DNA of 18,822 nt from an uncultured Opitutia bacterium (GTDB lineage Bacteria; Verrucomicrobiota; Verrucomicrobiae; Opitutales; MB11C04): the NCBI GenBank assembly GCA_913048545.1, contig CAJWWH010000023.1, forward strand, positions 1 to 18,822, written 5' to 3'. A program made the position numbers and the translations under genes. This document shows positions 1-18,822 of the stretch, piece by piece (position 1 is the first letter of the stretch; every line of letters starts with the position of its first letter). Below the pieces are notes generated by a model. It was not told the origin of the DNA and searched no databases. It saw nothing but the letters and a program-made list of their open reading frames with translations.

Positions 1-159
1 ACCGATCCCACCGGACCGGCATCGGGCTCCTTTCGTGTTTTTCGGGGCGGGTCTTGGAACGGTGCAGGCACGTACCTGCGTTCGGCTGGCCGCAGCTACA
101 GCATCCCGGGCGACCGCGGCTACATCATCGGCTTCCGTGTCGGTTTCAAACAGCAGTGA
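1..159 (+). CDS. DGR target protein, FGE-sulfatase/C-type-lectin-like fold (3' end only)
   Basis: Only the last 52 codons are present; the gene enters from the left edge in frame 1 and stops with TGA at 157-159. The translated tail carries the FGE/SUMF1-type C-terminal signature: RVFRGGSW (residues 12-19 of the visible part), then LRSAGR, and IGFRVGF near the end. This family has a C-type-lectin-like fold and is a common target of diversity-generating retroelements, whose variable residues form a ligand-binding surface at the C-terminus. The variable repeat occupies codons 6-48 of the visible part. Positions that are Asn codons in the downstream template are here Phe, Gly, Tyr, Gly, Ser, Tyr, Ser, Ile, Asp, Gly, Tyr and Ile, so the surface is diversified while RGGSWN and IGFRVG are kept. 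The ligand, signal peptide and full domain layout cannot be seen. Confidence 0.9.
   Translation, partial: TDPTGPASGSFRVFRGGSWNGAGTYLRSAGRSYSIPGDRGYIIGFRVGFKQQ
18..143 (+). repeat. DGR variable repeat (VR)
   Basis: This segment aligns without gaps to 1848-1973 (offset 1830). Between 21 and 140 there are 21 mismatches; 19 of them (31, 32, 40, 61, 62, 64, 73, 88, 89, 95, 97, 101, 104, 109, 112, 118, 119, 121, 125) fall where the other copy has A. The substitutions are 11 A-to-G and 8 A-to-T. The two others (33, 87) are C in the template and T here. The 3' part, 126-143, is an identical GC-rich block and is the likely initiation-of-mutagenic-homing (IMH) site. After 143 the copies diverge (144, 148-150), as expected of IMH versus IMH*. 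Confidence 0.95.
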
Positions 160-304
160 GCTAGGGACGGAAGGATGACGGCACTAGTGGATAAAAAGGC
201 GGAGCGCGGCGGGCCTGGACCAACGGGGCGGCAGCCCAAATGGGCCATGCCAGCAAGCGGAGCCCCGGCGTAATTGAGCGTTCTGTAAAACCAATTTTGA
301 ATGG
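160..304 (+). other. Intergenic region after the VR, with a small hairpin
   Basis: This 145-nt gap between the target gene stop and the HRDC gene has no convincing gene. It is visibly GC-richer than the RT region. Positions 230-251 can fold as GGCA+GCCCA / AA / TGGGC+TGCC, a 9-bp stem with a 2-nt bulge (246-247) and a tiny loop. Some DGRs need a hairpin downstream of the VR for efficient homing (established for the Bordetella phage element). This one is a weak candidate, 71 nt after the stop codon. It has no T-tract, so it is not an obvious terminator. Confidence 0.35.
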
Positions 305-799
305 GTGGTGGGAAAAGTTTCTTTTAAATATCGTTTTTTCCAAATCCCCGCTTGCGGGGATGAGTTTTTAGAGGGTGAGTTTAATGCGTTCCTCGAAAGA
401 AAACCAGTGGTCGATGTAAGGCAGGAGTTTGTGGAGGCAGAGAGTGGTGCCCAGTGGTGTTTCAGTGTTCGCTGGCGCGATGGGGCTGTGGCCAAGGATG
501 GCCCGAAAAGAGCCAAGGCGCTGGTGGATTATAAGGAAATTTTATCTCCGGAAGATTTTGTTACTTTTTCCCGTTTGCGCGATATCCGCAAAGAATTGGC
601 TAGAACCGAACAGGTGCCGGCGTACGCGATTTTTACCAACGAACAGTTGGCTGAGATCGCCAAGGCACTTCCACTTTCTGCTAATGCACTGTCTAAGATC
701 GAAGGGGTGGGGGAGAATAGGGTAGAAAAATATGGTAGCCAATTTCTCAAAGTTCTGAAGGAGGAAGCCAACCTGCAAACTGGAGATGCTAAGTCCTGA
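305..799 (+). CDS. DGR accessory protein with HRDC domain (Avd alternative)
   Basis: The 164-aa product has two parts. Residues about 5-60 (FKYRFFQIP..., ELNAFL-like EFNAFLERKPV, AQWCFSVRW) form a small alpha/beta module of the kind found at the N-terminus of DGR-associated HRDC proteins. Residues about 75-155 are an HRDC domain: LRDIRKELARTEQVPAYAIF, then LAEIAKALPLSANALSKIEGVG and a closing helix. HRDC domains bind nucleic acid, typically in RecQ helicases and RNase D. In a subset of DGRs an HRDC protein sits where Avd would be and is presumed to help the RT on the template RNA. The gene lies between VR and RT on the same strand. Its start is GTG at 305 or 308; there is no in-frame ATG upstream back to the TGA at 275 and no clear Shine-Dalgarno. 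HRDC assignment is firm; the accessory role is inferred from position. Confidence 0.85.
   Translation: MVGKVSFKYRFFQIPACGDEFLEGEFNAFLERKPVVDVRQEFVEAESGAQWCFSVRWRDGAVAKDGPKRAKALVDYKEILSPEDFVTFSRLRDIRKELARTEQVPAYAIFTNEQLAEIAKALPLSANALSKIEGVGENRVEKYGSQFLKVLKEEANLQTGDAKS
344..361 (+). repeat. Perfect 8-bp inverted repeat inside the HRDC gene start
   Basis: ATCCCCGC-TT-GCGGGGAT reads as a perfect hairpin with 8-bp arms (in practice about 7 bp with a 4-nt loop). It is 185 nt downstream of the target stop codon and 40 nt into the HRDC gene, encoding IPACGD. It is GC-rich in an AT-rich surrounding. It may be the structured element that supports homing, a translation-tuning hairpin, or chance; the sequence alone does not decide. 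Confidence 0.4.
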
Positions 800-829
800 T
801 CCTTTTCTAAACCAGGGAAATTTGTAAGC

Positions 830-1807
830 ATGAAGCGAGTGGGGTATCTTCTACCCGAAATTTTGGAATGGGAGAACTTACTCCTTTCCTTTTGCCGGGC
901 AGAACGGGGGGTAAGCGATAAGCATGAAGCTGATTTATATCGAGAAAATCTGGATGAAAACCTGAGGTTTTTGCGAGACGGGCTGGCGGATGGAAGTTTC
1001 CCCTTTGGGGAATACCATAGCTTTGAAGTACGCGATCCAAAGACTCGATTAATCCATGCACCAGCCTTTCGGGAGCGAGTGGCTCAGCACGCAATTTTTA
1101 ATGTGTGCGAACCTGTGCTGGAAAGGAAGTTAATTGATGATTCTTTTGCCTGCAGGACTGGCAAGGGAACGCATGGAGCGTTGCGTAGGGCGCAGGTATT
1201 TGCCCGAAGGCAAGATTGGTTCTTAAAACTGGATGTTCGGCGTTTTTTTGATTCCGTGGTTCACGACAGGTTGTTGGAAATGTTGGAGAGGGTATTTAAG
1301 GATAGAGGTGTACTTAATTTATTTAGAAAAATTTTAAACGGGTACTGTACAGGGCCGGGTCGTGGATTGCCCATTGGCAGTCTGGCTTCCCAGTTCTTTG
1401 CCAACCATTACTTATGTACTCTCGATCGAATGAGTAAGGAACAATTGAAGGTACCGGGTTATTTGCGTTATATGGATGATTTTATTCTTTGGGGGAATGA
1501 AAGGAAGGAGTTGTGCAGAGCGAGAGTACGGGTGGAAGAGTGCCTGGAAGAACTGGGATTGAAATTGAAAATAGGTAATCATCCGCAGAGGGTAAGGCAG
1601 GGTGTTCCTTTTCTTGGGCATGTGGTACACCCCTTCCGCATGGTTCCGGACCGGCGGGCAAGGGTACGATTTTTCCGAAAAATTCGTAGCCTGGAATCGC
1701 AGGCAGATGAAGGGTGGATTGATGAGCTGGAACTTCAACAGAGACATCAATGCCTGTTGGGATTTGGTAGCCTGTCCAACTTGAATACTTTACAGAAAGC
1801 CATTTAG
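830..1807 (+). CDS. Diversity-generating retroelement reverse transcriptase
   Basis: The 325-aa RT reverse-transcribes the TR transcript with adenine-specific infidelity, giving the cDNA that replaces the VR. Visible motifs are: ERVAQHAIFNVCEPVLE (motif 1-2 region, about residues 83-100), SFACRTGKGTHGA, motif 3 KLDVRRFFDS with catalytic Asp135, motif 4 LPIGSLASQFFAN (IGSLASQ at 182-188), YMDD at 214-217 (Asp216, Asp217), then GLKLKIGN and PFLGHVV. The IGxxxSQ form of motif 4, instead of the QG-type motif of group II intron RTs, is the known hallmark of DGR RTs. There is no maturase, X or endonuclease domain, which rules out a group II intron, and the length is within the usual range for DGR RTs. 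It starts at ATG 830, 30 nt after the HRDC stop, with a weak AGGGAA upstream. The template repeat follows 40 nt after its stop. Confidence 0.96.
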   Translation: MKRVGYLLPEILEWENLLLSFCRAERGVSDKHEADLYRENLDENLRFLRDGLADGSFPFGEYHSFEVRDPKTRLIHAPAFRERVAQHAIFNVCEPVLERKLIDDSFACRTGKGTHGALRRAQVFARRQDWFLKLDVRRFFDSVVHDRLLEMLERVFKDRGVLNLFRKILNGYCTGPGRGLPIGSLASQFFANHYLCTLDRMSKEQLKVPGYLRYMDDFILWGNERKELCRARVRVEECLEELGLKLKIGNHPQRVRQGVPFLGHVVHPFRMVPDRRARVRFFRKIRSLESQADEGWIDELELQQRHQCLLGFGSLSNLNTLQKAI

Positions 1808-1847
1808 AAATGTTTTAAACCAACTTATACTTTGGGCGCAAGACGAG

Positions 1848-1973
1848 GGCATCGGGCTCCAACCGTGTTATTCGGGGCGGGTCTTGGAACAATACAGGCA
1901 CGAACCTGCGTTCGGCCAACCGCAACAACAACAACCCGAGCAACCGCAACAACAACATCGGCTTCCGTGTCGG
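1848..1973 (+). repeat. DGR template repeat (TR)
   Basis: This is the invariant donor copy of the VR, in the same orientation as and 40 nt downstream of the RT gene. Read in the VR frame it contains 12 AAC codons and one AAT, with a run of four AAC at 1924-1935 and three at 1948-1956. This is the usual DGR design: mutating A in AAC gives NNC, so every outcome is a sense codon. Eleven of the 12 AAC codons and the AAT are altered in the VR; only the AAC at 1888-1890 (GGSWN) is kept. The frame stays open from 1819 to a TGA at 1981-1983 but has no start codon after the TAA at 1816, so it is very likely transcribed and not translated. The TR RNA is expected to extend on both sides of the repeat. 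Confidence 0.95.
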
Positions 1974-1983
1974 CTTCGTGTGA

Positions 1984-2301
1984 ATGATTGAAGGAATGGA
2001 CTTTCCTCAGGAAATTCAAATTTGAAACGCGTCTTGGTCCTGCGTCATCGAATAGATATTCGAGTTCGCAAAACCCATGTGTGGGATAAACCAGTGGGGG
2101 AAGTGAGTAGAGCAACATGCTTCGAAAGCTTTCTCCACCGGTGATTTACTATGCCACACACTTCGTCATCGCGAGGGCTCTAAGCCCATGGCGATCCACT
2201 GGGAAACGGGAAGCGAAGAGACAAGTCGACCGCGTTTCTCGAGACACGATGGATCAGAGCGTCGTCCATTCTGCCCTTCTCGGAATGACAAGAATTCCGT
2301 T
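1984..2301. other. Intergenic region after the TR
   Basis: This 318-nt region has no convincing gene. Its first half (1984-2160) shows only a 12-bp palindrome TTCAAATTTGAA at 2015-2026. The second half holds a repeat-like element (2164-2289) and a terminator-like hairpin (2281-2303). It separates the + strand DGR from the convergent - strand lipid operon. Confidence 0.5.
2164..2289. repeat. Degenerate palindromic (REP/MITE-like) intergenic repeat
   Basis: The left end CGTCATCGCGAGG and the right end (reverse complement TGTCATTCCGAG) are imperfect inverted copies. Further in, GCGATCCA and GGATC elements recur on opposite strands. This layout matches the widespread bacterial intergenic repeats of the CGTCATTGCGAGG...GCGATCC type, thought to be mobilised in trans. 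It encodes nothing. The match comes from recognising the pattern by eye; the copy number in this genome is unknown. Confidence 0.45.
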
Positions 2302-2303
2302 TT
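2281..2303 (+). terminator. Possible Rho-independent terminator of the DGR
   Basis: CGGAAT (2281-2286), a 7-nt loop and ATTCCG (2294-2299) form a 6-bp stem followed by TTTT (2300-2303). It points the right way to end the RT-TR transcript, but the stem is short and not very GC-rich. It overlaps the last codon of the convergent propeller gene. Confidence 0.35.
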
Positions 2304-3543
2304 ACCAACTATAACATGCGATCGCTTCCAGTTCGCGCACAAACATTTGTTTGCCCGATAAAGCGGGGTAGGACCAAGTGGGGGACTGGGAAATTTTCCG
2401 TTCTTCTAAAATAACCAATTTGTTTGAGTTTGCATCGATCCGGTAGAGGGTACCGTCCTCATCGAGAGCGAGAATTTCCTCCCCGTTTGAAACCATGGAC
2501 ATGTACTTACCGAAGGATTCACTACTGATCCACTTGGTTTTGCCGGTTTTCATGTCCAGACAGGTCATTCGCTGCTTCCTTAAATGGAGGTAGCAGTAGT
2601 CCCCGATCACAATTGGACTCGACATGTAGGCCTCCTGTTTATTCTGCCATTGTTCGGAGACCGAGAATCCGTCGGAGTTTTTTCCAAGTCCGACGAGCAC
2701 GCTTTTTCCACCGTAGCAACTTGTGAACACGGAATTTTCCAGAATTGTGGGGGTGAGGATATTCATTCCACGAAAGGCCTTCACCGGTTTTTTCCAAATG
2801 ACTTTTCCATCGCTCGGATTGACTCCGACCAAATCGGTTCGGGTTTGCACTACGAGTTGTTCGATTCCTCCCAGATTTGCAACTGTTGGTGAGGAAAATG
2901 CACAGTTGTATTTTTCCCCTTTCACGGTGAGGATGCGCCAAATGGATTCTCCGGTTCGCTTATCGATTTTAACCAGTCCGGTAGCGGCCTGTACATAGAG
3001 GTGATCCCCGAGGACCATGGGAGAGCAGACAAACCCAAAGGTGGGGAGCGGGGAACCGTATCTTTCCATAAAGTCCACACTCCATTTTTTTTCGCCGCTC
3101 TCCGCATCCAAACAGACCAAATAATCCCGCATGCCACAGACATAGAGATTTTCTCCATCAAACACGGGAGTCGATCTTATCCAACTCCCATTTTTCCAGG
3201 CAAAGAATGGAACACTCATTGATCCGGGCCATTGAGTTTCCCATTTTTGTTGCCCACTTGAACGCTCAAAGGCACGGACCACTTCGTTCTTTCCCTTGGT
3301 TTCGATGGTGAATACGAGACTGTCTGAGGTGATTGGCCCGGAATACCCCTTGCCGATTTTCTGTCGCCATGACAGGGATAATTTTTTTTCTGAAAGGGTG
3401 GTCGGCCAGGGTGCCCCGTCCGTTACGAAACCATCACGCATTGGACCCCGCCACTGGTTCCAATTGCCGGAATTATTACTGATTTCCTTCGCATCAGTAG
3501 ATGCAAAAAAGAGAGTGAAAATGAGGGAAAAGAATGTTTTCAC
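2302..3543 (-). CDS. Exported PQQ-like beta-propeller repeat protein
   Basis: The 413-aa protein has an N-terminal signal peptide (hydrophobic MKTFFSLIFTLFFAS, cleavage probably after ADA near residue 18). A beta-propeller follows, built of PQQ-type blades, each with a pattern such as VRAFERSSGQQKWE, LVCLDAESGEKKWS, LVKIDKRTGESIWR, LVGVNPSDGKVIWK and MTCLDMKTGKTKWI. The mature start WNQWRGPMRDG is typical of a family common in Planctomycetes and Verrucomicrobia. No dehydrogenase catalytic residues are evident, so it is more likely a binding or assembly protein than a quinoprotein enzyme. Its GTG start (3543-3541) overlaps the TGA of the upstream methyltransferase (GTGA), making it the last gene of the lipid operon. 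Its substrate is unknown; an envelope function linked to the lipids made by the operon is only inferred. Confidence 0.8.
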   Translation of the reverse strand: MKTFFSLIFTLFFASTDAKEISNNSGNWNQWRGPMRDGFVTDGAPWPTTLSEKKLSLSWRQKIGKGYSGPITSDSLVFTIETKGKNEVVRAFERSSGQQKWETQWPGSMSVPFFAWKNGSWIRSTPVFDGENLYVCGMRDYLVCLDAESGEKKWSVDFMERYGSPLPTFGFVCSPMVLGDHLYVQAATGLVKIDKRTGESIWRILTVKGEKYNCAFSSPTVANLGGIEQLVVQTRTDLVGVNPSDGKVIWKKPVKAFRGMNILTPTILENSVFTSCYGGKSVLVGLGKNSDGFSVSEQWQNKQEAYMSSPIVIGDYCYLHLRKQRMTCLDMKTGKTKWISSESFGKYMSMVSNGEEILALDEDGTLYRIDANSNKLVILEERKISQSPTWSYPALSGKQMFVRELEAIACYSW

Positions 3544-4580
3544 GGTTTTTTAAATAAGTAATGACTGACCCACCATTCCTGTCCATTTCTAAAACCAAAG
3601 GTCTCAGCACAGGCAAGGAAAAATATACGCCAACGGTAAAAGGTCCGATGGGCTTCAGCCATGGATAGGTCTTGGCTGAATAGCTTAAGGATTTCGGTGC
3701 GGGCCTGATCAATATTAACTACCCAATCCTCGGATGTCCGGGCGTAATGTTCACCGGACCAACGCCAACGGTGCTCGAGTTCAAGGTTGCCTGAGATGCG
3801 AAGGAAAAGTTCGTCCGCGGGCATGGTGCCCCCGCTAAAGAAGTGCTTGGACATCCAGTCATCCTCTCCTTCCACTTCAAAGGGGTAGGAGGTTGACCGG
3901 TGGCAAAAGACATGGGCGAATAGTTTACCACCCTGTTTAAGCCAACCGTGAATACGACTGAACAATTCACGATGATTGCGTACATGTTCGAACATTTCCA
4001 CCGAGACCACCCGGTCAAACTGGGAATCGGTTTCAAATTCGTTAATGTCCTCAGTATGAACCGTAAGGTTTTCGAGACCACGCCTTCTAGCCTGTCCCAT
4101 AATATATTCGCGCTGGGAATTTGAATTGGAAATTGAGGTGATTTTTGATTTTGGGAAGTGCTTAGCCATCCAAAGTGAAAGCGAGCCCCAGCCACAGCCC
4201 AGTTCCAGAATATCCAACCCGTTTTCCAGGTTGGCATGTTCGCAGGTCAGTGCGAGGGCACGGTCTTCCGCTTGGTCGAGGGAATCATTTTTGGAGTCGT
4301 AGTAGCAGCAGCTGTACTTGTAGTTCTTTCCCAGGGCATAGTGGTAAAATTCCGCTGGTACTTCGTAGTGTTGTTGATTGGCTTTTTCGGTGAGCACGGC
4401 CATGGGGGAGGCATCCGATTCCTTAATGTATTTCTCCGCGAGTTCGGCATTGGCTTCGCAGTCATTGGCTTTGCATTGTTGCAGACGTTTTTTACAAAGA
4501 TTGCGTATGCCTGCACGGATAAGAAAATCGGGCACCAGTCCGCGTTCAGCAAGGTCGATAAAAAAATTGGTCAGACTCAT
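3540..4580 (-). CDS. SAM-dependent methyltransferase, cyclopropane-fatty-acid-synthase family (second copy)
   Basis: This 346-aa class I methyltransferase has SAM-binding motif ILELGCGWGSLSLWMA (ELGCGWGS at 126-133), acidic DINEF after strand 4, and VSVEMFEHVRN (about 192-202). Upstream lies HYEVPAEFYHYALGKNYKYSC, resembling the substrate-side motif of CFA synthases. The full pattern also resembles the coclaurine-N-methyltransferase-like branch of this superfamily, which occurs in bacteria as well as plants. It lacks the long N-terminal domain of true CFA synthases. The likely job is methylation of an unsaturated acyl chain or lipid headgroup. It follows the DUF1295 gene with a 3-nt gap and overlaps the propeller gene by 4 nt. 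Two CFA-family enzymes in one operon suggest sequential or alternative methylation steps. Confidence 0.8.
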   Translation of the reverse strand: MSLTNFFIDLAERGLVPDFLIRAGIRNLCKKRLQQCKANDCEANAELAEKYIKESDASPMAVLTEKANQQHYEVPAEFYHYALGKNYKYSCCYYDSKNDSLDQAEDRALALTCEHANLENGLDILELGCGWGSLSLWMAKHFPKSKITSISNSNSQREYIMGQARRRGLENLTVHTEDINEFETDSQFDRVVSVEMFEHVRNHRELFSRIHGWLKQGGKLFAHVFCHRSTSYPFEVEGEDDWMSKHFFSGGTMPADELFLRISGNLELEHRWRWSGEHYARTSEDWVVNIDQARTEILKLFSQDLSMAEAHRTFYRWRIFFLACAETFGFRNGQEWWVSHYLFKKP

Positions 4581-4583
4581 TTT

Positions 4584-5375
4584 TTAATTTTGATTTTTCG
4601 GGAGTCCCGGAAAAAAAGAATTGGTTTGTTGAATGTAAGATTTGTATTCCTCTCCGCTTGCTTCCAACTTTCTGGCTTCCACAAATGGAACCCCAGTGAT
4701 TTTACTGAGAAAAATATAGAGAATTACCGGAATTAATAGGAGCCATGGACCAAGTGGTGCCTGCCATCCAATAAATATATAACCAATCCAAAGGACCCAT
4801 TCGAAAAAATAATTGGGATGGCGTGAATATTTCCAAAGTCCGGTGTTACATACATCCGCCCGTGTACGGTTTGGCTGGGATTTAAATATTTTGAGTTGTT
4901 TATCTGCGATGTGGACACCACAAAACCCAATTAACCAGATGATTAAACCGATATGATCGAGGGTGTTTACCGGATTTTGATTCTTTACCAGAATAAGAAA
5001 TGGCGAGGCAAATAAGACCACCCAGAATGCCTGCACCTGGAAAAAGACAAAGAACCCAAGGTTGGCTTTTTTCCCCATGTATTCACGAAGGTAGGCATAG
5101 CGTGCATCCTCCGGTTTCCCGATACATCTTTTAAGCAGATATGTGCCCAGTCGAATGGACCAGGTAAGGAGCAGGGCTTTAAGTAAAGCCATCCTCGCCG
5201 GGTCAGTATTTTCATCGGCTAAAACCAGGTAGATGAATCCAAGTACTCCAACACCGTAGCCCCAGAGAACATCAACATAGGATGTATTTTTAATTACCAC
5301 GGCGTGAACCCAGGCAAGTGCCATCACCAAAGATGCACCCAGTTGTCCGTAGAGAAGAAGTTCAAGCGTACTCAT
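4584..5375 (-). CDS. DUF1295 integral membrane protein, steroid-5-alpha-reductase-like fold
   Basis: This 263-aa polytopic membrane protein has about six to seven hydrophobic segments. The family signature WKYSRHPNYFFEW (181-193) is present, with the C-terminal GVPFVEARKLEASGEEYKSY. DUF1295 proteins share the fold of steroid 5-alpha-reductases and isoprenylcysteine methyltransferases and are thought to act on lipid double bonds with NAD(P)H; the exact reaction in this context is unknown. I chose ATG 5375 because it forms an ATGA overlap with the upstream DUF2878 stop. A longer frame back to 5432 would only add residues overlapping that gene. It is a recurrent neighbour of CFA-like, DUF1365 and DUF2878 genes in light- or singlet-oxygen-induced lipid clusters. 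Confidence 0.82.
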   Translation of the reverse strand: MSTLELLLYGQLGASLVMALAWVHAVVIKNTSYVDVLWGYGVGVLGFIYLVLADENTDPARMALLKALLLTWSIRLGTYLLKRCIGKPEDARYAYLREYMGKKANLGFFVFFQVQAFWVVLFASPFLILVKNQNPVNTLDHIGLIIWLIGFCGVHIADKQLKIFKSQPNRTRADVCNTGLWKYSRHPNYFFEWVLWIGYIFIGWQAPLGPWLLLIPVILYIFLSKITGVPFVEARKLEASGEEYKSYIQQTNSFFPGLPKNQN

Positions 5376-5893
5376 TCGGGTAATGGGAATTTGAGATGTA
5401 GGTAGCGTAGGACGATGCCGGCAATAGCCCACTCCACAGCCACACCAAGGTGGGATTGGAGGTCAATGCTGAGGGCAAGCACCTCCAGTTTTTGCCCGGA
5501 ATAATATGCAACCACACCTCCAGCTGAAAAACCAATGATTGCTCGCCAACAATGATCGAGAAACCAAGTGAAGAGAGGCCTGAGCATGAGGCCAAAATTA
5601 AGCCACAGGGCAACCATCCACAGCGGGGCCCCGAAAAGGGAAGGGTAAGGTTCAAAGGAAAGCAGGCCAAGGTTAACAAGGGTTGCATCTCCAACAACTC
5701 CCAAGATTAGACAGGCCAAAGTAAAAGGAAGGGCCTGAGCCAGCCCACGGGTAAGGAGTACGCGAACCAGAACAAGAAGGAGGACTAGGATGGGGAGCAG
5801 ATGCGGGAATGGACTGCGGGTGGCGAGGACACAGCCAAACCAGGCAACCTGAAAGATTACCAAGTCAGTAATGAATGAGATTCGGGGACTCAT
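5372..5893 (-). CDS. DUF2878 family membrane protein
   Basis: The 173-aa, very hydrophobic protein has about five membrane segments: FITDLVIFQVAWFGCVLA, LLPILVLLLVLVRVLL, ALPFTLACLILGVVGD, PLWMVALWLNFGLML and a C-terminal one. The GVVGDATLV and LWLNFG motifs with membrane spans are what I associate with DUF2878. No biochemical function is established. The start at 5893 overlaps the stop of the upstream CFA synthase-like gene (ATGA), and its own stop overlaps the start of the DUF1295 gene, so translation is coupled on both sides. Its consistent presence in this kind of cluster suggests a lipid-linked membrane role. Confidence 0.75.
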   Translation of the reverse strand: MSPRISFITDLVIFQVAWFGCVLATRSPFPHLLPILVLLLVLVRVLLTRGLAQALPFTLACLILGVVGDATLVNLGLLSFEPYPSLFGAPLWMVALWLNFGLMLRPLFTWFLDHCWRAIIGFSAGGVVAYYSGQKLEVLALSIDLQSHLGVAVEWAIAGIVLRYLHLKFPLPE

Positions 5894-7158
5894 TGTGGGA
5901 AGCCGCGGCATAGTTTGCATTCCGGCTTGGCGAGGAGGAGATGAATATCCCCGGTGTAGCCTTCCTCAAACCCGGCTTCGCAATAACTGAGGTAATAAAG
6001 CCATGCCCTGCGGAAATGTTCGTCATATCCAAGTTCTTTAATCTGGTTCTCGTTTTCGAGAAAGCGCAGGCGCCACTCCCGTAGGGTACGGGAATAATGG
6101 TATCCAAAATCGTGAAGGTCGGCCGGGCGCAGGTTCGATTCCTTGACCGCGGCTTCAATCATCGCGGAGGCGGAGGGTACACAGCTCCCAGGGAAGACAC
6201 GCGTGCGTATGTAGTCGACTTCCTTGAGGTACTGGTCATAGCGATGATCGGGCATGGTTATTCCCTGTATCATGGCGGCACCCGTTGGGAGCAGAAGGTC
6301 AGAAATTTTGGAAAAGTAGGCGGTTAGAAATTCGTGGCCCACCGCCTCGATCATTTCGATGGAAACAATTCGGTCAAACTGGCCAACTAAATCGCGGTAG
6401 TCTTTTTTTATAATCGACACCCTGTCCTCGAACCCGTTTTTTTGAATCCTGTTTTGGGCATATTCAAATTGACGGTCAGAAATTGTGGTGGCGGTTAGCT
6501 TGGCCTTGGTTTGTTGGGCGAGCCGGTCTGCGAATCCACCCCATCCACACCCGATTTCAAGAACATGGTGGTGGGGTTGAATGTCAAGCTGATCAATAAT
6601 CCGGTCGTATTTTGCCAGTGAAGCCTGTTCAAGGGTGGATTGGGGAGATTCAAAAATCCCACATGAATAAGTCATGGTCGGGTCGAGCATGAGTTCATAA
6701 AAATCATTCCCGAGGTCGTAGTGTAGGGCGATATTTTTTCGGCTTCCTTTGCGGGTGTTTTTTTGCCCGAGTAAATAGCTCCATCTGGCAATTCGGTTGA
6801 GCAGGGAAGCCCATCCTCCTTCCATCCCGTCCATCACATCCTGGTTTTGTAAAAAGAGGCGGAATACATCGACGAGGTCATCGGTTTCCCAGTCTCCGTC
6901 CGCATAACTGTCCGCCACTCCGAGAGAGCCACCGAGGCAGCATTTACGAAAGAAGGATTTATTGGTTATTTCAATACCTGCAGAAATGTGGTCACTCGAA
7001 GGGGTACCTAGGGTGAGTTGGCGTTTTCCCATTTTGACTGATAGGGAGCCCCGATCAATATTTTTTAACTGGCCAAGCAGGGCACGTTCCCAAAACCCGG
7101 CATTTCCGTTTTCTGAAAGTGTGAACTGGTTGGCATGTTCAGCCGGTTGGTTATTCAT
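5890..7158 (-). CDS. Cyclopropane-fatty-acyl-phospholipid synthase-like methyltransferase
   Basis: At 422 aa this is full length for the CFA synthase family. It has the N-terminal SCP2-like/lipid-binding part (about 30-130), then ALHYDLGNDFYELMLDP (about 145-160) and MTYSCGIF with Cys166 where CFA synthase has its bicarbonate-binding Cys. The SAM site is VLEIGCGWGGFADRL (EIGCGWGG at 201-208), followed by VSIEMIEAVG (Glu271). E. coli Cfa has EHVG where this protein has EAVG, typical of the subfamily found with FAD/DUF1365 genes. It would transfer a methyl group from SAM to the double bond of an acyl chain in a membrane phospholipid, yielding a cyclopropane or a methylated (furan-fatty-acid precursor) chain. 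It starts immediately after the DUF1365 stop (TAA at 7161-7159, ATG at 7158). Confidence 0.88.
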   Translation of the reverse strand: MNNQPAEHANQFTLSENGNAGFWERALLGQLKNIDRGSLSVKMGKRQLTLGTPSSDHISAGIEITNKSFFRKCCLGGSLGVADSYADGDWETDDLVDVFRLFLQNQDVMDGMEGGWASLLNRIARWSYLLGQKNTRKGSRKNIALHYDLGNDFYELMLDPTMTYSCGIFESPQSTLEQASLAKYDRIIDQLDIQPHHHVLEIGCGWGGFADRLAQQTKAKLTATTISDRQFEYAQNRIQKNGFEDRVSIIKKDYRDLVGQFDRIVSIEMIEAVGHEFLTAYFSKISDLLLPTGAAMIQGITMPDHRYDQYLKEVDYIRTRVFPGSCVPSASAMIEAAVKESNLRPADLHDFGYHYSRTLREWRLRFLENENQIKELGYDEHFRRAWLYYLSYCEAGFEEGYTGDIHLLLAKPECKLCRGFPQ

Positions 7159-10083: not shown

Positions 10084-11028
10084 TTACGTAGCAGAATCCG
10101 AGATGAGGGATAATTCTAAAGGACTCATCTTGGTTTTGCCACGTAAATCGGTACTTACGAGTTGATCTAATTTTCTAAAATCCACTTTTCCATTTTGTAG
10201 GAGTACTGCGCGTAGTTTTCTTAAACCAAGAGACTCCAACTGCCTTACCCGTTCACCTGAAACATTCATGGAGTCAGCTATATCATCAAGCTTCATTGAT
10301 TCACCTTTTTCCATACCAAAACGCATGCTTAAAACCTTTCTTTCCCGTTGATCGAGAAATGAAAGTGCTACCCCAATGTCATCCTTGAGCGAACCATCTT
10401 CCCTGTAGGACTGATTGAGTTCTTCTTCGGCGGTCATGAGATCAGCCAAAGTACTGTCTGAATCTTCGTTCAGAGGTTCATCGAGTGAAAGCGAGCTGGT
10501 GGGAGCAAATTTGACACGTTTGGTGAGATTACGATCTTGGCCAAGTGCAGTGCTGACTTCATCATCTGTGGGAACCCGTCCAAATTCGACTTGCAACTCT
10601 GAGCGTACCATACCTTCTTTTCTTTTACCTTGAGACACATCATGTGGAATAGCTACGGCACCTGACATTTTGCCGATTAAGCGTTGAATACGTTGGCGAA
10701 TCCACCATGCAGCATATGTACTTAATTTAATGCCACGAGTGTGATCAAACTTATCTAAGGCGACAATAAGACCTTGAATGCCTTCAGCCATAATGTCATC
10801 CATTAAGACATTTGTCTGGCGAAATTTCAGGGCGATAGATGCAACTAAACGAATGTGTCTTTCGATAAGTTCTTTTCTTGCGTCATCAGAACCTTTGAGC
10901 ATTTCCTCAAAAAGAGCGTCACACTCTTCCTTGGTTGGTGGTGCCATGCGTGAACGATCGGAAATAAAACGCCCCACTGGATCGGGACTTTCTTTTCCAT
11001 TATTGGTTTTAACATGTGGAGTTACCAT
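10084..11028 (-). CDS. RNA polymerase sigma-70 family factor, group 2-like (lacks region 1.1)
   Basis: The 314-aa factor has a region 1.2-like start (DPVGRFISDRSRMAPPTKEE, about 16-35), region 2 (RHIRLVASIALKFR, MAEGIQGLIVALDKFDHTRG, LSTYAAWWIRQRIQ, about 57-115), region 3 with SELQVEFGRVPTDDEV, and region 4 (LDQRERKVLSMRFGM, MNVSGERVRQLESLGLRKLR). It lacks region 1.1 and the long insert of a primary sigma factor, so it is group 2 or 3, not ECF. A tail of about 35 residues follows region 4. I chose ATG 11028; the frame runs up to ATG 11097, preceded by AGGGA, but the extra 23 residues look like translated AT-rich leader DNA. It is the first gene of the nine-gene operon and a plausible autoregulator of it. 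No anti-sigma gene is adjacent. Confidence 0.88.
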   Translation of the reverse strand: MVTPHVKTNNGKESPDPVGRFISDRSRMAPPTKEECDALFEEMLKGSDDARKELIERHIRLVASIALKFRQTNVLMDDIMAEGIQGLIVALDKFDHTRGIKLSTYAAWWIRQRIQRLIGKMSGAVAIPHDVSQGKRKEGMVRSELQVEFGRVPTDDEVSTALGQDRNLTKRVKFAPTSSLSLDEPLNEDSDSTLADLMTAEEELNQSYREDGSLKDDIGVALSFLDQRERKVLSMRFGMEKGESMKLDDIADSMNVSGERVRQLESLGLRKLRAVLLQNGKVDFRKLDQLVSTDLRGKTKMSPLELSLISDSAT

Positions 11029-11199
11029 AACAGGGAATAGAACGAAAGATTTATAATTTAGGATCATACAAAATAAACAATATTTTTTTTGGTACATTTT
11101 TCATTCCCTAAATCTTACAGGACAGAGGGTTTTAAAGGGATTAAAACTCTGAAAAAGTTTGTCCTTTGGATGTTTTAGGAATCAGATACCTGTTTACTG
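11029..11199. promoter_or_regulatory. Divergent promoter region between the sigma operon and the exonuclease-ligase operon
   Basis: The region is AT-rich. An imperfect inverted repeat lies at 11124-11150: AGAG-gg-TTTTAA, spacer AGGGA, TTAAAA-CTCT. On the - strand a weak promoter could be TTGTTT (11080-11075) and TATAAA (11055-11050), 19 nt apart, giving a short leader before ATG 11028. On the + strand a perfect TATAAT sits at 11052-11057 but has no fitting -35. None of these is secure. Confidence 0.35.
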
Positions 11200-13891: not shown

Positions 13892-15457
13892 TTACAATGA
13901 TTTTAGCCGGGCAAGGCTGTTCTTAAAGCGAGCGAGGTTCTCTTTGGCACTTTGTTTTCTTTCCACAATTGGGTTTGGATAATCCTTACCGATTGTACAG
14001 TTTGAATTTGCCTGAACATTCTCAGGTGCCAAGTGAGGTTCGTAGATATACTTGGGAGGGAAATCTTTTAACTCAGGTACCCAGTACTTGATGAATTCAG
14101 CATTTTCTGCCTCCACATTCAGACTGGATTTTCCATCCGGACAGGGGTTGTAGAGCCTGAAATAGGGCATGGAAAAAGGAGCGACTCCGGCCAGCCATAA
14201 CCAGTTCCCATTGTTTAATGCCCAGTCACTGTCGAGGAGTTTTCGGTCAAATACATCTCTTCCAAATTTCCAGTTTTGCCAAAGTTGTCCACGGGTCAGA
14301 AAACAGGAGACTGCATGTCTGGCCAGGTGGTGCATCCAACCAGTAGTATGGAGTTGTCTCATCATGGCATCAATTAAGGGAAACCCAGTCTGTCCGTTTT
14401 CCCATGCCTCCATTTTTTTCTGGTCAAAATCTCCCCATTCAATTTCTTTGCACATTACATTGGATTGATCCTCATCCCAATGATCCACGCTTCTTGACAG
14501 GAGGTAGAACATTTCCCTGAACATCAATTGGCCGTGTAAGGATTCAGGTGGTTGTGAATGGGCACCCTGAAGCTGGCATTTTTCACATTCTTTCCATAAT
14601 TGCCGGACCGATAAACTGCCAACGCTCAAATAAGGTGATAGCCCAGTGGTACTGGGTTCCATTGGTTCACCCGCCTGATTAGTCGACATGGTTTTCGGCT
14701 TTCTAAAGGTATTTACATAATCCGTCTGTCCGGATACTTTCTTTCTTAATCTGTCCAATGCTTCGGTTTCTCCCCCGGGGAAATAAGATTTTACAGACAT
14801 GATATCAGTCTTCACTTCCCGGGAGATCTGAGTGGTCAACTCTTCAATTGATAACGATTGGACACCGGTGACCTGAGGTAAAGGTTTGATTTTACCCGGT
14901 GCAGGAATTGGATCCTCAATTTTGTAAAACCCATGTTCATCTTTATCAAAATGTGAAGAAAATATTCGATCGATGTCTTTCATCGATTTTGGATTTCGGT
15001 AGTCCGCTGAGGAGACTGCTTTTTCCACATCAAGAATAGTCTGGAAGGCACTGAATGATTGAATCTGTACCGATGCATTCTTTTTCTCAAGTGCTTTTTG
15101 CAGGGAGGAAATTTTTTTCCGCTCCCACGGTTCGGAGCAGTACTCGCAGTTGATGGAACCTAAAGATTGTCCGAGCTGATCGGCAATATTTTCAAAAATT
15201 ACATTTGGATTACCCTGTAGAATAAATAACCCACTCCCGTACTGGGAGGAAAGCTGGCGGTCGAGGTCGGATAAACCTTCGATTAAAAAGCGTAATCGAT
15301 TGGGGCTCCATTTTTGATAATTTTCTCCGACCGTATCGGGATCAAGTATATAGAGCGGTAAAATCGAATCGACATTTTCGTTTTCACAGGAAGCAGTAAG
15401 CGCCGGGTTGTCATGCAGACGCAGGGATTTTCGAAACCATACAATCGAGGTTTTCAT
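13892..15457 (-). CDS. Cryptochrome/(6-4) photolyase-like flavoprotein, animal-type
   Basis: The 521-aa photolyase/cryptochrome family member has an N-terminal photolyase domain (IVWFRKSLRLHDNPAL, 5-20) and a C-terminal FAD domain (about 270-500) with GQTGFPLIDAMMRQLHTTGW, DSDWALNNGNWLWLAG and YFRLYNPC. The stretch HHLARHAVSCFLTRG (HHLARH at 376-381) and later FPPKYIYEP closely match animal cryptochromes and (6-4) photolyases. The two histidines of the (6-4) repair site are conserved there, whereas CPD photolyases have an NR or NRxRM pattern. It could repair (6-4) photoproducts or act as a blue-light sensor. It lies 64 nt downstream of the CPD photolyase gene on the same strand; co-transcription is likely but not proven. 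Family certain, subtype inferred from motifs. Confidence 0.88.
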   Translation of the reverse strand: MKTSIVWFRKSLRLHDNPALTASCENENVDSILPLYILDPDTVGENYQKWSPNRLRFLIEGLSDLDRQLSSQYGSGLFILQGNPNVIFENIADQLGQSLGSINCEYCSEPWERKKISSLQKALEKKNASVQIQSFSAFQTILDVEKAVSSADYRNPKSMKDIDRIFSSHFDKDEHGFYKIEDPIPAPGKIKPLPQVTGVQSLSIEELTTQISREVKTDIMSVKSYFPGGETEALDRLRKKVSGQTDYVNTFRKPKTMSTNQAGEPMEPSTTGLSPYLSVGSLSVRQLWKECEKCQLQGAHSQPPESLHGQLMFREMFYLLSRSVDHWDEDQSNVMCKEIEWGDFDQKKMEAWENGQTGFPLIDAMMRQLHTTGWMHHLARHAVSCFLTRGQLWQNWKFGRDVFDRKLLDSDWALNNGNWLWLAGVAPFSMPYFRLYNPCPDGKSSLNVEAENAEFIKYWVPELKDFPPKYIYEPHLAPENVQANSNCTIGKDYPNPIVERKQSAKENLARFKNSLARLKSL

Positions 15458-15521
15458 GAATCGTGGTTAAGTAGTAAGGAGTCAGTGCAATGGGGAAACA
15501 ACATTTGGGAATTTATCCTGA

Positions 15522-16982
15522 TTAGGATTCTTTAATCGAAGCAAGTGCTTCGAGTGCACGGGCACGGCCTTCCTTATGATCCACACAGGGATGGGGATAA
15601 TTATTACCCAGAAAAACATCACTCACCAGCAAGAGATCGGGTGGGGCTTCCCAAGGCTTGAAAATCCATTTTCCGGGCAGTTCTTTAAGGCTGGGAATCC
15701 ATTTTCGTGCATATTCTCCTTTGCCATCAAATTTTTCTCCCTGCGTGATCGGATTGAAAATTCGGAAGTAGGGAGCCGCATCAGCTCCGCAACCCGCTGC
15801 CCATTGCCAACCCTGCGTGTTACTGGCGAGGTCGGCATCCACTAATGTATCCCAAAACCATCGGGCTCCATCCTGCCAGGAAATAAGCAGGTGTTTCACT
15901 AGGAATGAGGCAACCACCATACGCACCCGGTTGTGCATCCATCCAGTTTCATAGAGTTGCCTCATCCCGGCATCCACCATCGGATATCCGGTGTTTCCAA
16001 ACTGCCATGCATGGAGGGATTTTTTATCATCAAGCCAAGGGAAAGTGGAATATTTTTCCCGAAGGGGTTGATCCGCAATATGGGGAAAGTGATAGAGCAG
16101 TTGGTAAGAAAATTCACGCCAGCCAATTTCGACGAGGTATTTGTTTTCACCACGATGCCCACCTTCATTGTCCGCGGTGAGAACAGCTTGGCAAATTTGC
16201 CTCGGACTTACCAATCCCCAGGCGAGGTAGGGAGATAATCGGGAAGTTCCGTCTTTGGAGGGGATATTTCTTGCCGTGGCGTAGGACCGGGTTATCACTT
16301 CGGCAGTTCGTTGAATAAGTTTGTGGGCCGCTTTTTCTGAAACATCCCAGTGTTCGGATAGTTTTAAATGCCAGTCGTGATCGGGTAAAAGTTCCAACTC
16401 ATCTAGACTAATTCCATCTGATTTAAGGTTGAAAAAAGATAAGTTCTTTAAGGAATACTTGGCTGGTTCACGATAGATACCCGCCCGTGATTTTCGCCAA
16501 TATGGAGTAAATACTTGGAAGGGTCGTCCGGATCCATTTTTAACTTCCCAGGGTTCGTGTAATAAACTGGTGTTGAATGATTCCAGGGAGATCGGATAGT
16601 CTGTAAAGGACGTTTCCACTGTCTGCTCGGTGGCTCGTCCAGCTGGGTCGTAGGTTCTGCCAAAGTAAAGGGTGTCTGCTTGCAAATCTTCAGCCAGTCG
16701 AGGCAGGATTTCTTCTGCTCTTCCTTTTTTTAAAAGGAGGGAGCCGCCTAGATCTTCTATATCCTTACCCAAACTGGCAAGTGCCTGATGGAGCCACCAA
16801 CGGGCGGCTGAACCCGGGCTCCATGCACCCCCTTCCTCCTTATTCCAAATGTAAACCGGTATGATTTCCTTTCCCGATTTTAATGCGGCTTCCAAGCATG
16901 GATTGTCGGCTAATCTCAGATCTTTGCGAAACCAAACCAGAGCCCGCCCACCGCTCGGAGCAGAAGATGGATCAGCGATCAT
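15522..16982 (-). CDS. phrB: Class I deoxyribodipyrimidine (CPD) photolyase
   Basis: The 486-aa protein has an N-terminal Rossmann-like domain (ALVWFRKDLRLADNPCL, about 14-30) and a C-terminal FAD domain with SRLSPYLAWGLVSPRQ, IGWREFSYQLLYHFP, NTGYPMVDAGMRQLYETGW, MHNRVRMVVASFLVK, DADLASNTQGWQWAAG and PYFRIFNP. These are the class I CPD photolyase signatures, including NRVRM where (6-4) enzymes have HLARH. It repairs cyclobutane pyrimidine dimers with light and FADH-. Its ATG start (16982) overlaps the end of the SDR gene by 11 nt, so the two are co-translated. Placing a photolyase with an SDR and near a CFA/DUF1365 cluster recalls light-stress regulons of Proteobacteria. Confidence 0.93.
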   Translation of the reverse strand: MIADPSSAPSGGRALVWFRKDLRLADNPCLEAALKSGKEIIPVYIWNKEEGGAWSPGSAARWWLHQALASLGKDIEDLGGSLLLKKGRAEEILPRLAEDLQADTLYFGRTYDPAGRATEQTVETSFTDYPISLESFNTSLLHEPWEVKNGSGRPFQVFTPYWRKSRAGIYREPAKYSLKNLSFFNLKSDGISLDELELLPDHDWHLKLSEHWDVSEKAAHKLIQRTAEVITRSYATARNIPSKDGTSRLSPYLAWGLVSPRQICQAVLTADNEGGHRGENKYLVEIGWREFSYQLLYHFPHIADQPLREKYSTFPWLDDKKSLHAWQFGNTGYPMVDAGMRQLYETGWMHNRVRMVVASFLVKHLLISWQDGARWFWDTLVDADLASNTQGWQWAAGCGADAAPYFRIFNPITQGEKFDGKGEYARKWIPSLKELPGKWIFKPWEAPPDLLLVSDVFLGNNYPHPCVDHKEGRARALEALASIKES

Positions 16983-17688: not shown

Positions 17689-17749
17689 ATTTATATATCG
17701 TTAATTTGGGTTTTTCAGATCACAATTAATCTCCTTTCTTGCTTTTTTT

Positions 17750-17768
17750 GAAATTTGTAACATATTTC
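17750..17768. promoter_or_regulatory. Dyad operator candidate upstream of umuDC
   Basis: GAAATTTGTAACATATTTC pairs 8 of 9 half-site positions around a central A. It ends 7 nt before the umuD ATG, in the 86-nt gap between the divergent SDR-photolyase genes and umuDC. Its position fits a repressor site, with LexA the natural suspect. It does not match the LexA boxes of E. coli or Bacillus, so the binding protein is unassigned. Confidence 0.35.
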
Positions 17769-17774
17769 AAAACT

Positions 17775-18290
17775 ATGACAAGAGGTGGAAAGAGAAACGG
17801 AGCCGGCCGGCCCCAAGGAAGTAATTTATACGGCGAAAAAACCCGTCCGGTCCGTATACCGATCAGCCAAGTGGAGCGGGTCCTGCGGTTTGTTCGGGAA
17901 CGGGAGAATCAATTACCCCTTTATGCCTGTGGGGTATCTGCTGGATTTCCCTCGCCGGCAGATGATTACCTCGAAGGTGCCCTCGACCTGAATACCCATC
18001 TGGTCCGCGAGCCCAATGCCACTTTTTTTGTCCGGGCGAATGGAGAGTCTATGATTGGGGCGGGAATCCATGATGGAGACTTGTTAGTGGTGGACCGGAG
18101 TGCCCGGGTGACTGATGGAAAAGTGGTCATCGTGGCCTTGAACGGCGAGCTCACCGTAAAACGATTTCGGAAGGAGAAGGAGAAATCCTGGTTGATGCCG
18201 GAAAACCCAAAGTTTAAACCGATTCTTTTAAACGAGCAGGATGATACTCATTTATGGGGGGTGGTCACCAGTGTGATCCATTCCCTATGA
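17775..18290 (+). CDS. umuD: UmuD-like S24 peptidase, translesion polymerase subunit
   Basis: The 171-aa self-cleaving S24 peptidase has its cleavage site in [17 protein letters not shown] (Ala56-Gly57), nucleophile Ser92 in NGESMIG, general base Lys129 in ELTVKRF, and GDLLVVDRS between. [10 protein letters not shown] and GDLLVVD match E. coli UmuD closely. RecA-stimulated cleavage would yield the active form that joins UmuC as DNA polymerase V. The protein is about 30 residues longer than E. coli UmuD because of a basic N-terminus, [11 protein letters not shown] (3-13), of AT-hook-like composition. I start at ATG 17775, which begins this motif. A TTG at 17739 is possible but would put the dyad inside the gene. 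The stop overlaps the umuC start (ATGA). Confidence 0.92.
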
Positions 18291-18822
18291 TTGCCCTGGC
18301 GGACTGTAATAACTTTTATGTTTCCTGCGAGCGGGTCTTTCGTCCCGCATTGCGAAATAGACCCGTAATTGTGCTTTCGAATAATGACGGCTGTGCCGTG
18401 GCCCGTTCCAATGAGGCTAAAGCCCTCGGTATTCCGATGGGAGCTCCCTATCACCAGATTAAAAGATGCTGCGAACATAATGGAGTGGTCGTACTTTCAT
18501 CCAATTATGAATTGTATGGCGATATGTCCAGGCGGGTCACTTCGGTTCTTGCCCGGTTTGCCCCGGAGTTGGAAATTTATTCGATTGATGAATCTTTTCT
18601 GAACCTGAGTGGAGTGGAATCCCCGTTGCTTTTGAGTCAGCGGATTCGTAAAACAGTGGGTCGTTGGACTGGAATTCCCATATCGATTGGCCTCGGTAAA
18701 ACCAAGACATTGGCCAAGTTAGCCAACCGGCTGGCTAAGAAAAAAAAGACCGGGTGTTTTGAGGTGTGGGCCGGGCAGGATGATGTGCTCAGCGGTATTC
18801 CGATTGAGGATATCTGGGGGGT
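18287..18822 (+). CDS. umuC: DNA polymerase V catalytic subunit UmuC (5' part)
   Basis: The first 178 codons of a Y-family polymerase are present, running off the right edge without a stop. It begins [18 protein letters not shown], with the metal-binding Asp6. It continues [30 protein letters not shown] and [10 protein letters not shown] with catalytic Asp101-Glu102, then [20 protein letters not shown]. The numbering of the DE pair equals that of E. coli UmuC. It performs error-prone translesion synthesis with cleaved UmuD and is translationally coupled to umuD (ATGA). Confidence 0.95.

What the first reader, a model, noticed from the sequence alone, without database searches (positions are those of the whole stretch)
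1..1983. Complete diversity-generating retroelement with matching VR/TR
VR (18-143) and TR (1848-1973) align without gaps. Nineteen of 21 differences in 21-140 are at template adenines (11 to G, 8 to T, none to C). The RT has the DGR-specific IGSLASQ plus YMDD motifs, and the order target-accessory-RT-TR is classic. The TR has 33 adenines in 1851-1970, so over half are altered. This makes the target a hypervariable, probably surface or ligand-binding, FGE/C-type-lectin-like protein.
Basis: partly seen in the sequence, partly recalled or inferred. Interest (0 to 1): 0.95.

Follow-up and report, generated by a model that had tools for sequence, protein, structure and literature searches.

The report
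Bacterial hypermutation cassette with RNA scaffold
This stretch of likely bacterial chromosome carries a reverse-transcriptase cassette whose template copy differs from its target gene almost only at adenines, so it is predicted to rewrite the end of a likely surface protein; the template lies inside a predicted RNA fold that relatives with a different helper protein also keep, which suggests that the RNA is the lasting core of such machines.

Summary
In detail: VR 18-143 and TR 1848-1973 differ at 21 sites, 19 of them template adenines. The locus is a diversity-generating retroelement (DGR) of an Opitutales-like bacterium. Three parts of the reading change: the target is only a 52-codon tail, so the cassette is not complete; the helper is an HRDC-domain protein, not Avd; and the order target-HRDC-RT-TR is not the prototypical one. 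In 58 related loci the TR flanks form a locus-specific closing stem (0 of 20,000 permutations in 46 lineages). Behind it stands a hairpin with an NGUA/GAA internal loop, found in 54 of 82 RT loci, including 9 of 10 loci with a confirmed Avd gene, so it likely predates the Avd-to-HRDC exchange suggested by the RT tree. In the closest relative with a held genome one TR matches four VRs in two genes: 74 of 128 adenine cells and 1 of 368 others are changed. A 115-bp element behind the window's VR recurs in three genomes only behind VRs that end a gene. The RNA is not in Rfam 15, but the key BPP-1 RNA paper could not be read here. 'No A-to-C' belongs to this one VR, not to the clade.

The parts
1..159 (+). 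3' end (52 codons and stop) of the target gene, FGE-like tail
   Evidence: translation; PF03781 E 0.0019, below cut-off
18..143 (+). variable repeat (VR)
   Evidence: ungapped alignment with TR, 19 of 21 differences at template A
158..272 (+). tail element behind the VR, with an inverted repeat at about 160-188; function inferred
   Evidence: in G001-G003 matched at E up to 0.1 only behind VRs that end a gene (5 full matches, 1 partial at a contig end); copies aligned
305..799 (+). HRDC-domain accessory protein (164 aa)
830..1807 (+). DGR reverse transcriptase (325 aa)
   Evidence: RVT_1; phrog_1423 1.4e-90; IGSLASQ and YMDD, tree
1839..1845 (+). 5' arm of the closing stem P1 (CAAGACG)
1848..1973 (+). 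template repeat (TR)
2030..2036 (+). 3' arm of the closing stem P1 (CGTCTTG)
2094..2138 (+). hairpin P3 with internal loop AGUA/GAA (2106-2109 and 2124-2126); model hit 2096-2136

Best explanation
This is a diversity-generating retroelement whose transcript is predicted to fold around its template, with a closing stem (P1) on both sides of the TR and an NGUA/GAA hairpin (P3) behind it, so that the RT, likely with the HRDC protein, would copy the TR with errors at adenines and the cDNA would replace the VR of a likely surface-exposed FGE-fold target. Shown by sequence: the adenine-biased VR/TR pair, the DGR-type RT, the HRDC gene, TR flanks that pair within each locus better than across lineages, the hairpin at a fixed place, and the element behind the VR. 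Shown in the closest relative with a held genome (G001, RT 79% identical): one TR matches four VRs in two genes on two contigs, changed at adenines and at one other site only. Inferred: that P1 and P3 serve cDNA priming and RT binding as reported for the BPP-1 spacer; that HRDC stands in for Avd; that the 158-272 element helps target choice; and that the window's own genome holds further targets.
For: VR/TR statistics. RT within DGR RTs and inside a 59-row group that holds all 53 HRDC rows, support 100/94 (74 of the 82 loci entered the tree, the rest were too short or had a stop). P1: 0 of 100,000 permutations in 14 lineage representatives, 0 of 20,000 in 46 (z -9.8; with HRDC 30, z -8.0; without 16, z -5.3). 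P3: strict form in 24 of 58 loci, 0 of 1,160 shuffles, 0 of 58 in each of seven permuted-loop controls at the same cut-off, 0 of 423 control stretches and 0 of 58 minus strands; covariation 0.928 against 0.280, 0 of 500 shuffles (19 sequences chosen for having the stem); model R1 found 11 of 12 later-fetched loci (L112 repeats L010) and gave 48 of 49 hits in the right place in 82 loci, 30 of the 48 not in training. Trans rewriting in G001: 74 of 128 A cells and 1 of 368 other cells changed; VR non-A positions 91-92 of 92 alike between copies while 300 nt upstream are 58-86% alike.
Against: No reads or experiment: activity of the window's own locus is not shown. The window's P1 is modest (second of 17 and fourth of 17). 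28 of 82 RT loci have no P3 hit at E up to 1, and of 18 phage DGR loci only three have one at the expected place (one with E below 0.05), BPP-1 none. Six rows of the HRDC group have no HRDC hit; two of these loci are cut short (L027, L109), four have 1.5 kb upstream (L028, L085, L087, L092). The tail element is missing behind internal VRs of G001, which are rewritten all the same, and behind the cassette-side VR of G003.
Confidence: 0.88

Rival explanations
1. An ordinary HRDC-branch DGR; the pairing TR flanks and the hairpin are simply the DGR RNA already described for BPP-1, so the locus adds a member and nothing else.
For: BPP-1's spacer is reported to fold, bind bRT-Avd and prime cDNA (PMC12875486, passages); a BPP-1 duplex between its TR 5' flank and the spacer folds at -28.3 kcal/mol (no control run); HRDC accessory, multi-VR and remote targets are in print. 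From memory, the 2025 Nature abstract says the RNA mechanism is probably conserved in distant DGRs; the paper was not held.
Against: BPP-1 has no P3 hit; Rfam 15 has no such family in the window or in 11 relatives; the open-licence searches listed no paper on it.
Confidence: 0.4
2. The DGR is a decayed leftover: the RT and TR persist but the window's VR is no longer rewritten.
For: Target truncated in the window; two C>T differences are not at adenines; G003 relatives carry frame-breaking indels in VRs.
Against: RT and HRDC frames are open; 19 of 21 differences at A with otherwise identical sequence; P1 and P3 kept; G001 VRs nearly free of other changes.
Confidence: 0.1
3. The 158-272 element is a conserved 3' UTR or transcription-end structure of the target genes and has no part in retrohoming.
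For: Internal VRs of G001 lack it and are rewritten all the same; it does not fit the 7-10 bp stem with a 4-nt GRNA loop given for BPP-1-like targets (PMC3240598, passages).
Against: 81-87% conserved although non-coding and found only behind gene-ending VRs in the three genomes searched.
Confidence: 0.4

Closest known systems
Treponema denticola DGR with HRDC accessory (PMC4891356, passages read)
   Same: HRDC-domain accessory next to the RT; one TR serving several, partly remote targets
   Different: There the accessory gene lies between TR and RT; here TR is last, behind the RT; spirochaete against Opitutales-like host; its RNA was not compared here
Bordetella phage BPP-1 DGR (L053; PMC3240598 and PMC12875486, passages)
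   Same: DGR RT, adenine-biased VR/TR, RNA stretch behind the TR, a repeat element behind the VR
   Different: Avd instead of HRDC; TR before the RT; GRNA-loop hairpin behind the VR; no P3 hit
Multi-VR FGE targets: Marichromatium purpuratum (PMC3521204), Thiohalocapsa PB-PSB1 DGR 4 (PMC10907252), passages read
   Same: Several VR-bearing domains in one target gene, as in L001 and L006 relatives of the window
   Different: Other lineages; the window itself shows only one VR; accessory genes not compared here
Avd-type DGRs of Planctomycetota and Verrucomicrobiota (L029, L030, L032, L071, L072, L074-L076, L082, L083)
   Same: TR behind the RT, FGE-like TR, closing stem; P3 hits in 9 of 10
   Different: bAvd accessory (PF22296); RTs outside the HRDC group

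Membership tests
Diversity-generating retroelement | TR/VR pair with differences almost only at template adenines | tested here: met
   19 of 21 at A, P 2.2e-11
Diversity-generating retroelement | RT of the DGR clade with (I/V/L)GxxxSQ and YxDD | tested here: met
   IGSLASQ, YMDD and tree position; motif definition from PMC3521204 passages
Diversity-generating retroelement | VR at the end of a C-type-lectin/FGE-fold target gene | tested here: inconclusive
   52-codon tail, PF03781 E 0.0019 below cut-off; full domains only in relatives
Diversity-generating retroelement | demonstrated retrohoming in the window's organism | not testable with these tools
   no reads, no genome held
BPP-1-like (Avd) DGR | Avd accessory gene | tested here: not met
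   accessory matches HRDC, no Avd match
BPP-1-like (Avd) DGR | GC-rich 7-10 bp hairpin with 4-nt GRNA loop behind the VR | tested here: inconclusive
   read by eye and by folding: inverted repeat with a longer loop at about 160-188; definition from PMC3240598 passages
HRDC-type DGR (T. denticola kind) | HRDC-domain gene next to the DGR RT | tested here: met
   HRDC group in the tree
HRDC-type DGR (T. denticola kind) | accessory gene between TR and RT | tested here: not met
   order here is VR, HRDC, RT, TR
Known Rfam 15 RNA family | match of the TR flanks at E up to 1 | tested here: not met
   none in window 1-2400; in 11 related loci only group II intron pieces in L026

The most novel reading that the evidence does not exclude
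An RNA scaffold, a stem that closes the template into a loop followed by a GUA/GAA (bulged-G-like) hairpin, is the old core of a large part of DGRs. It stayed while the protein helper was exchanged from Avd to HRDC on one branch, and it is found with the template on either side of the RT. In the Opitutales branch one scaffolded template serves a dispersed set of multi-domain surface proteins, many of whose gene-ending target sites are marked by a dedicated 115-bp tail.
Probability: 0.5. Interest if true: 0.75.

Novelty: new variant of a known kind. Interest (0 to 1): 0.5.

Why it matters
The DGR biochemistry in the papers seen here rests on one phage system with Avd. A covariance-backed RNA shared by Avd- and HRDC-type cassettes gives a direct way to ask what the helper protein does and what the RNA does. 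One template matching four VRs in two genes of a bacterium makes trans targeting testable from sequence alone, and the 115-bp tail is a concrete candidate for how such a system marks its targets.

Full report
The VR lies in the last 52 codons of a frame (stop 157-159) that enters from the left edge, so the target is not complete. No genome is held for the window.

RELATIVES. The RT is 77-79% identical to three Opitutales loci (L001-L003). Others come from the phylum of L004, Planctomycetota (26 of 392 genomes at E up to 1e-45), of L006, Verrucomicrobiota (23 of 387), of L010, Hydrogenedentota (8 of 68), and from the order of G001 (10 of 372 at 1e-40). Duplicates, TR/VR hit loci and two distant RTs dropped, and before the Hydrogenedentota loci were added, 82 RT loci remained, 58 with an HRDC hit upstream and 24 without; some of the 24 are cut short upstream. 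74 of the 82 entered a tree with nine phage DGR RTs and two outgroup RTs. All 53 HRDC rows fall in one 59-row group (100/94); the six others there are L027 and L109 (cut short upstream) and L028, L085, L087 and L092 (1.5 kb upstream, no HRDC hit). Ten loci outside that group have a confirmed bAvd gene (PF22296). The simplest reading is one exchange of Avd for HRDC; this is inferred from the tree, whose root was not tested.

RNA. In 20 loci the stretch before the TR looked complementary to one behind it. In 14 lineage representatives own pairing beat all 100,000 permutations. In 58 loci where a TR was found by its translated motif (24 of 82 without were dropped), 46 representatives gave 0 of 20,000, z -9.8, with HRDC (30, z -8.0) and without (16, z -5.3). 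Several loci do not stand out singly, and the window's own P1 is modest: second of 17 and fourth of 17. Behind P1 lies hairpin P3 with an internal loop NGUA/GAA, which I recognise from memory as the bulged-G (sarcin-ricin-like) motif; no call tested its three-dimensional form. The strict form: 24 of 58 loci at score 12 or more, 0 of 1,160 shuffles, 0 of 58 in each of seven permuted-loop controls, 0 of 423 control stretches, 0 of 58 minus strands. In 19 aligned representatives, chosen because they have the stem, 93.8% of cells pair (62.6% shuffled), and nine of ten outer pairs show two-sided changes; with 47 model-aligned rows 91.3% against 62.2%. R1 found 11 of 12 loci fetched after the training set was fixed (L116 missed, L112 repeats L010). 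Over the 82 loci it gave 49 hits at E up to 1, 48 in the right orientation behind the RT, 30 of these not in training; where a TR was known they start 83-182 nt behind the TR core. With R2 the union is 54 of 82: 39 of 58 HRDC loci and 15 of 24 others. Of ten bAvd-confirmed loci nine have it (four were in training; L071 has none). In 18 phage loci three hits lie at the expected place (E 0.008, 0.72, 0.99), one is misplaced, and BPP-1 has none.

TARGETS. In G001, the genome of L001, one TR has four VRs: two in the gene beside the cassette and two in a second gene on another contig. Of 128 template-adenine cells 74 are changed (31 G, 27 T, 16 C), of 368 other cells one. Between copies 91-92 of 92 non-adenine positions agree while the 300 nt upstream are 58-86% alike: what copying from one template predicts. 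G003 has ten VR-like matches on five contigs; the six aligned all have 1-6 gap positions against the TR, by assembly error or decay. G002 has three weaker ones, with many changes outside adenines. The L001 target has two FGE and two bacterial surface Ig-like stretches, the L006 target two FGE stretches. Several VRs in one gene and remote targets are in print (passages of PMC3521204, PMC6642488, PMC10907252, PMC4891356). Seven short proteins of public contigs share most constant residues of the window's tail and differ at many template-adenine codons.

TAIL ELEMENT. Window 158-272 has full-length matches in G001 (2) and G003 (3) and one partial match at a contig end of G002; each full match lies behind a VR that ends a gene, and nothing else matched at E up to 0.1 (surroundings). 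It is absent behind internal VRs of G001, which are rewritten all the same, and behind the cassette-side VR of G003, so it cannot be strictly needed. It holds an inverted repeat that differs between copies, not the GRNA-loop hairpin of BPP-1-like targets (PMC3240598, passages).

BASE SPECTRUM. The window has no A>C in 19. Against G001 (16 of 74) P is 0.0098 by the pooled rate and Fisher 0.036, both post hoc. DiGReF reports that single VRs of one DGR can differ strongly (PMC3521204, passages), and context effects are known for bRT (PMC12875486, passages). I take it as variation of one VR.

VERDICT. A real, likely functional DGR of the HRDC branch. What is new against what I could read is the conserved RNA scaffold on both sides of the Avd/HRDC divide and the tail element. 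How far the RNA part overlaps with the unread 2025 Nature paper is open, so the rival 'already known RNA' keeps a high weight.

Noticed in passing
window 2155-2300: Dispersed repeat: 30 matches at E up to 0.001 in G001-G003, directly behind the DGR RNA.
   Followed up: partly
window 1-18; L012 1-120; L002 1-62: The window begins 17 bases before its VR, contig L012 ends at its VR, and L002's contig ends inside the tail element; assemblies may break at VRs because they are diverse or repeated.
   Followed up: no
window 2302-7158 and L001 6806-10975: Window and L001 share the genes behind the DGR in the same order (PQQ-type, CMAS-type methyltransferases, DUF1295, DUF2878); L002 and L003 have other genes there.
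   Followed up: no
L004, L010, L014, L017, L025 (RT 3' ends): The RT frame stops only three bases before the TR core motif, so the RT gene reads into the TR; in the window the RT stops before the TR.
   Followed up: no
L003 / G003 VRs: VRs with 1-6 gap positions against the TR that break reading frames.
   Followed up: partly
L085, L087, L092, L028: Rows of the HRDC group without an HRDC hit in 1.5 kb upstream.
   Followed up: partly
window 13892-16982 and 10084-11097: Two photolyase genes, a sigma-70-type factor and a desaturase/CMAS/amine-oxidase cluster.
   Followed up: no
window 17739-18820: An S24 peptidase gene overlapping a Y-family polymerase gene (IMS domain) that runs off the right edge.
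   Followed up: no
L026 258-610: Group II intron pieces, just under Rfam's cut-off, beside an HRDC-type DGR.
   Followed up: no
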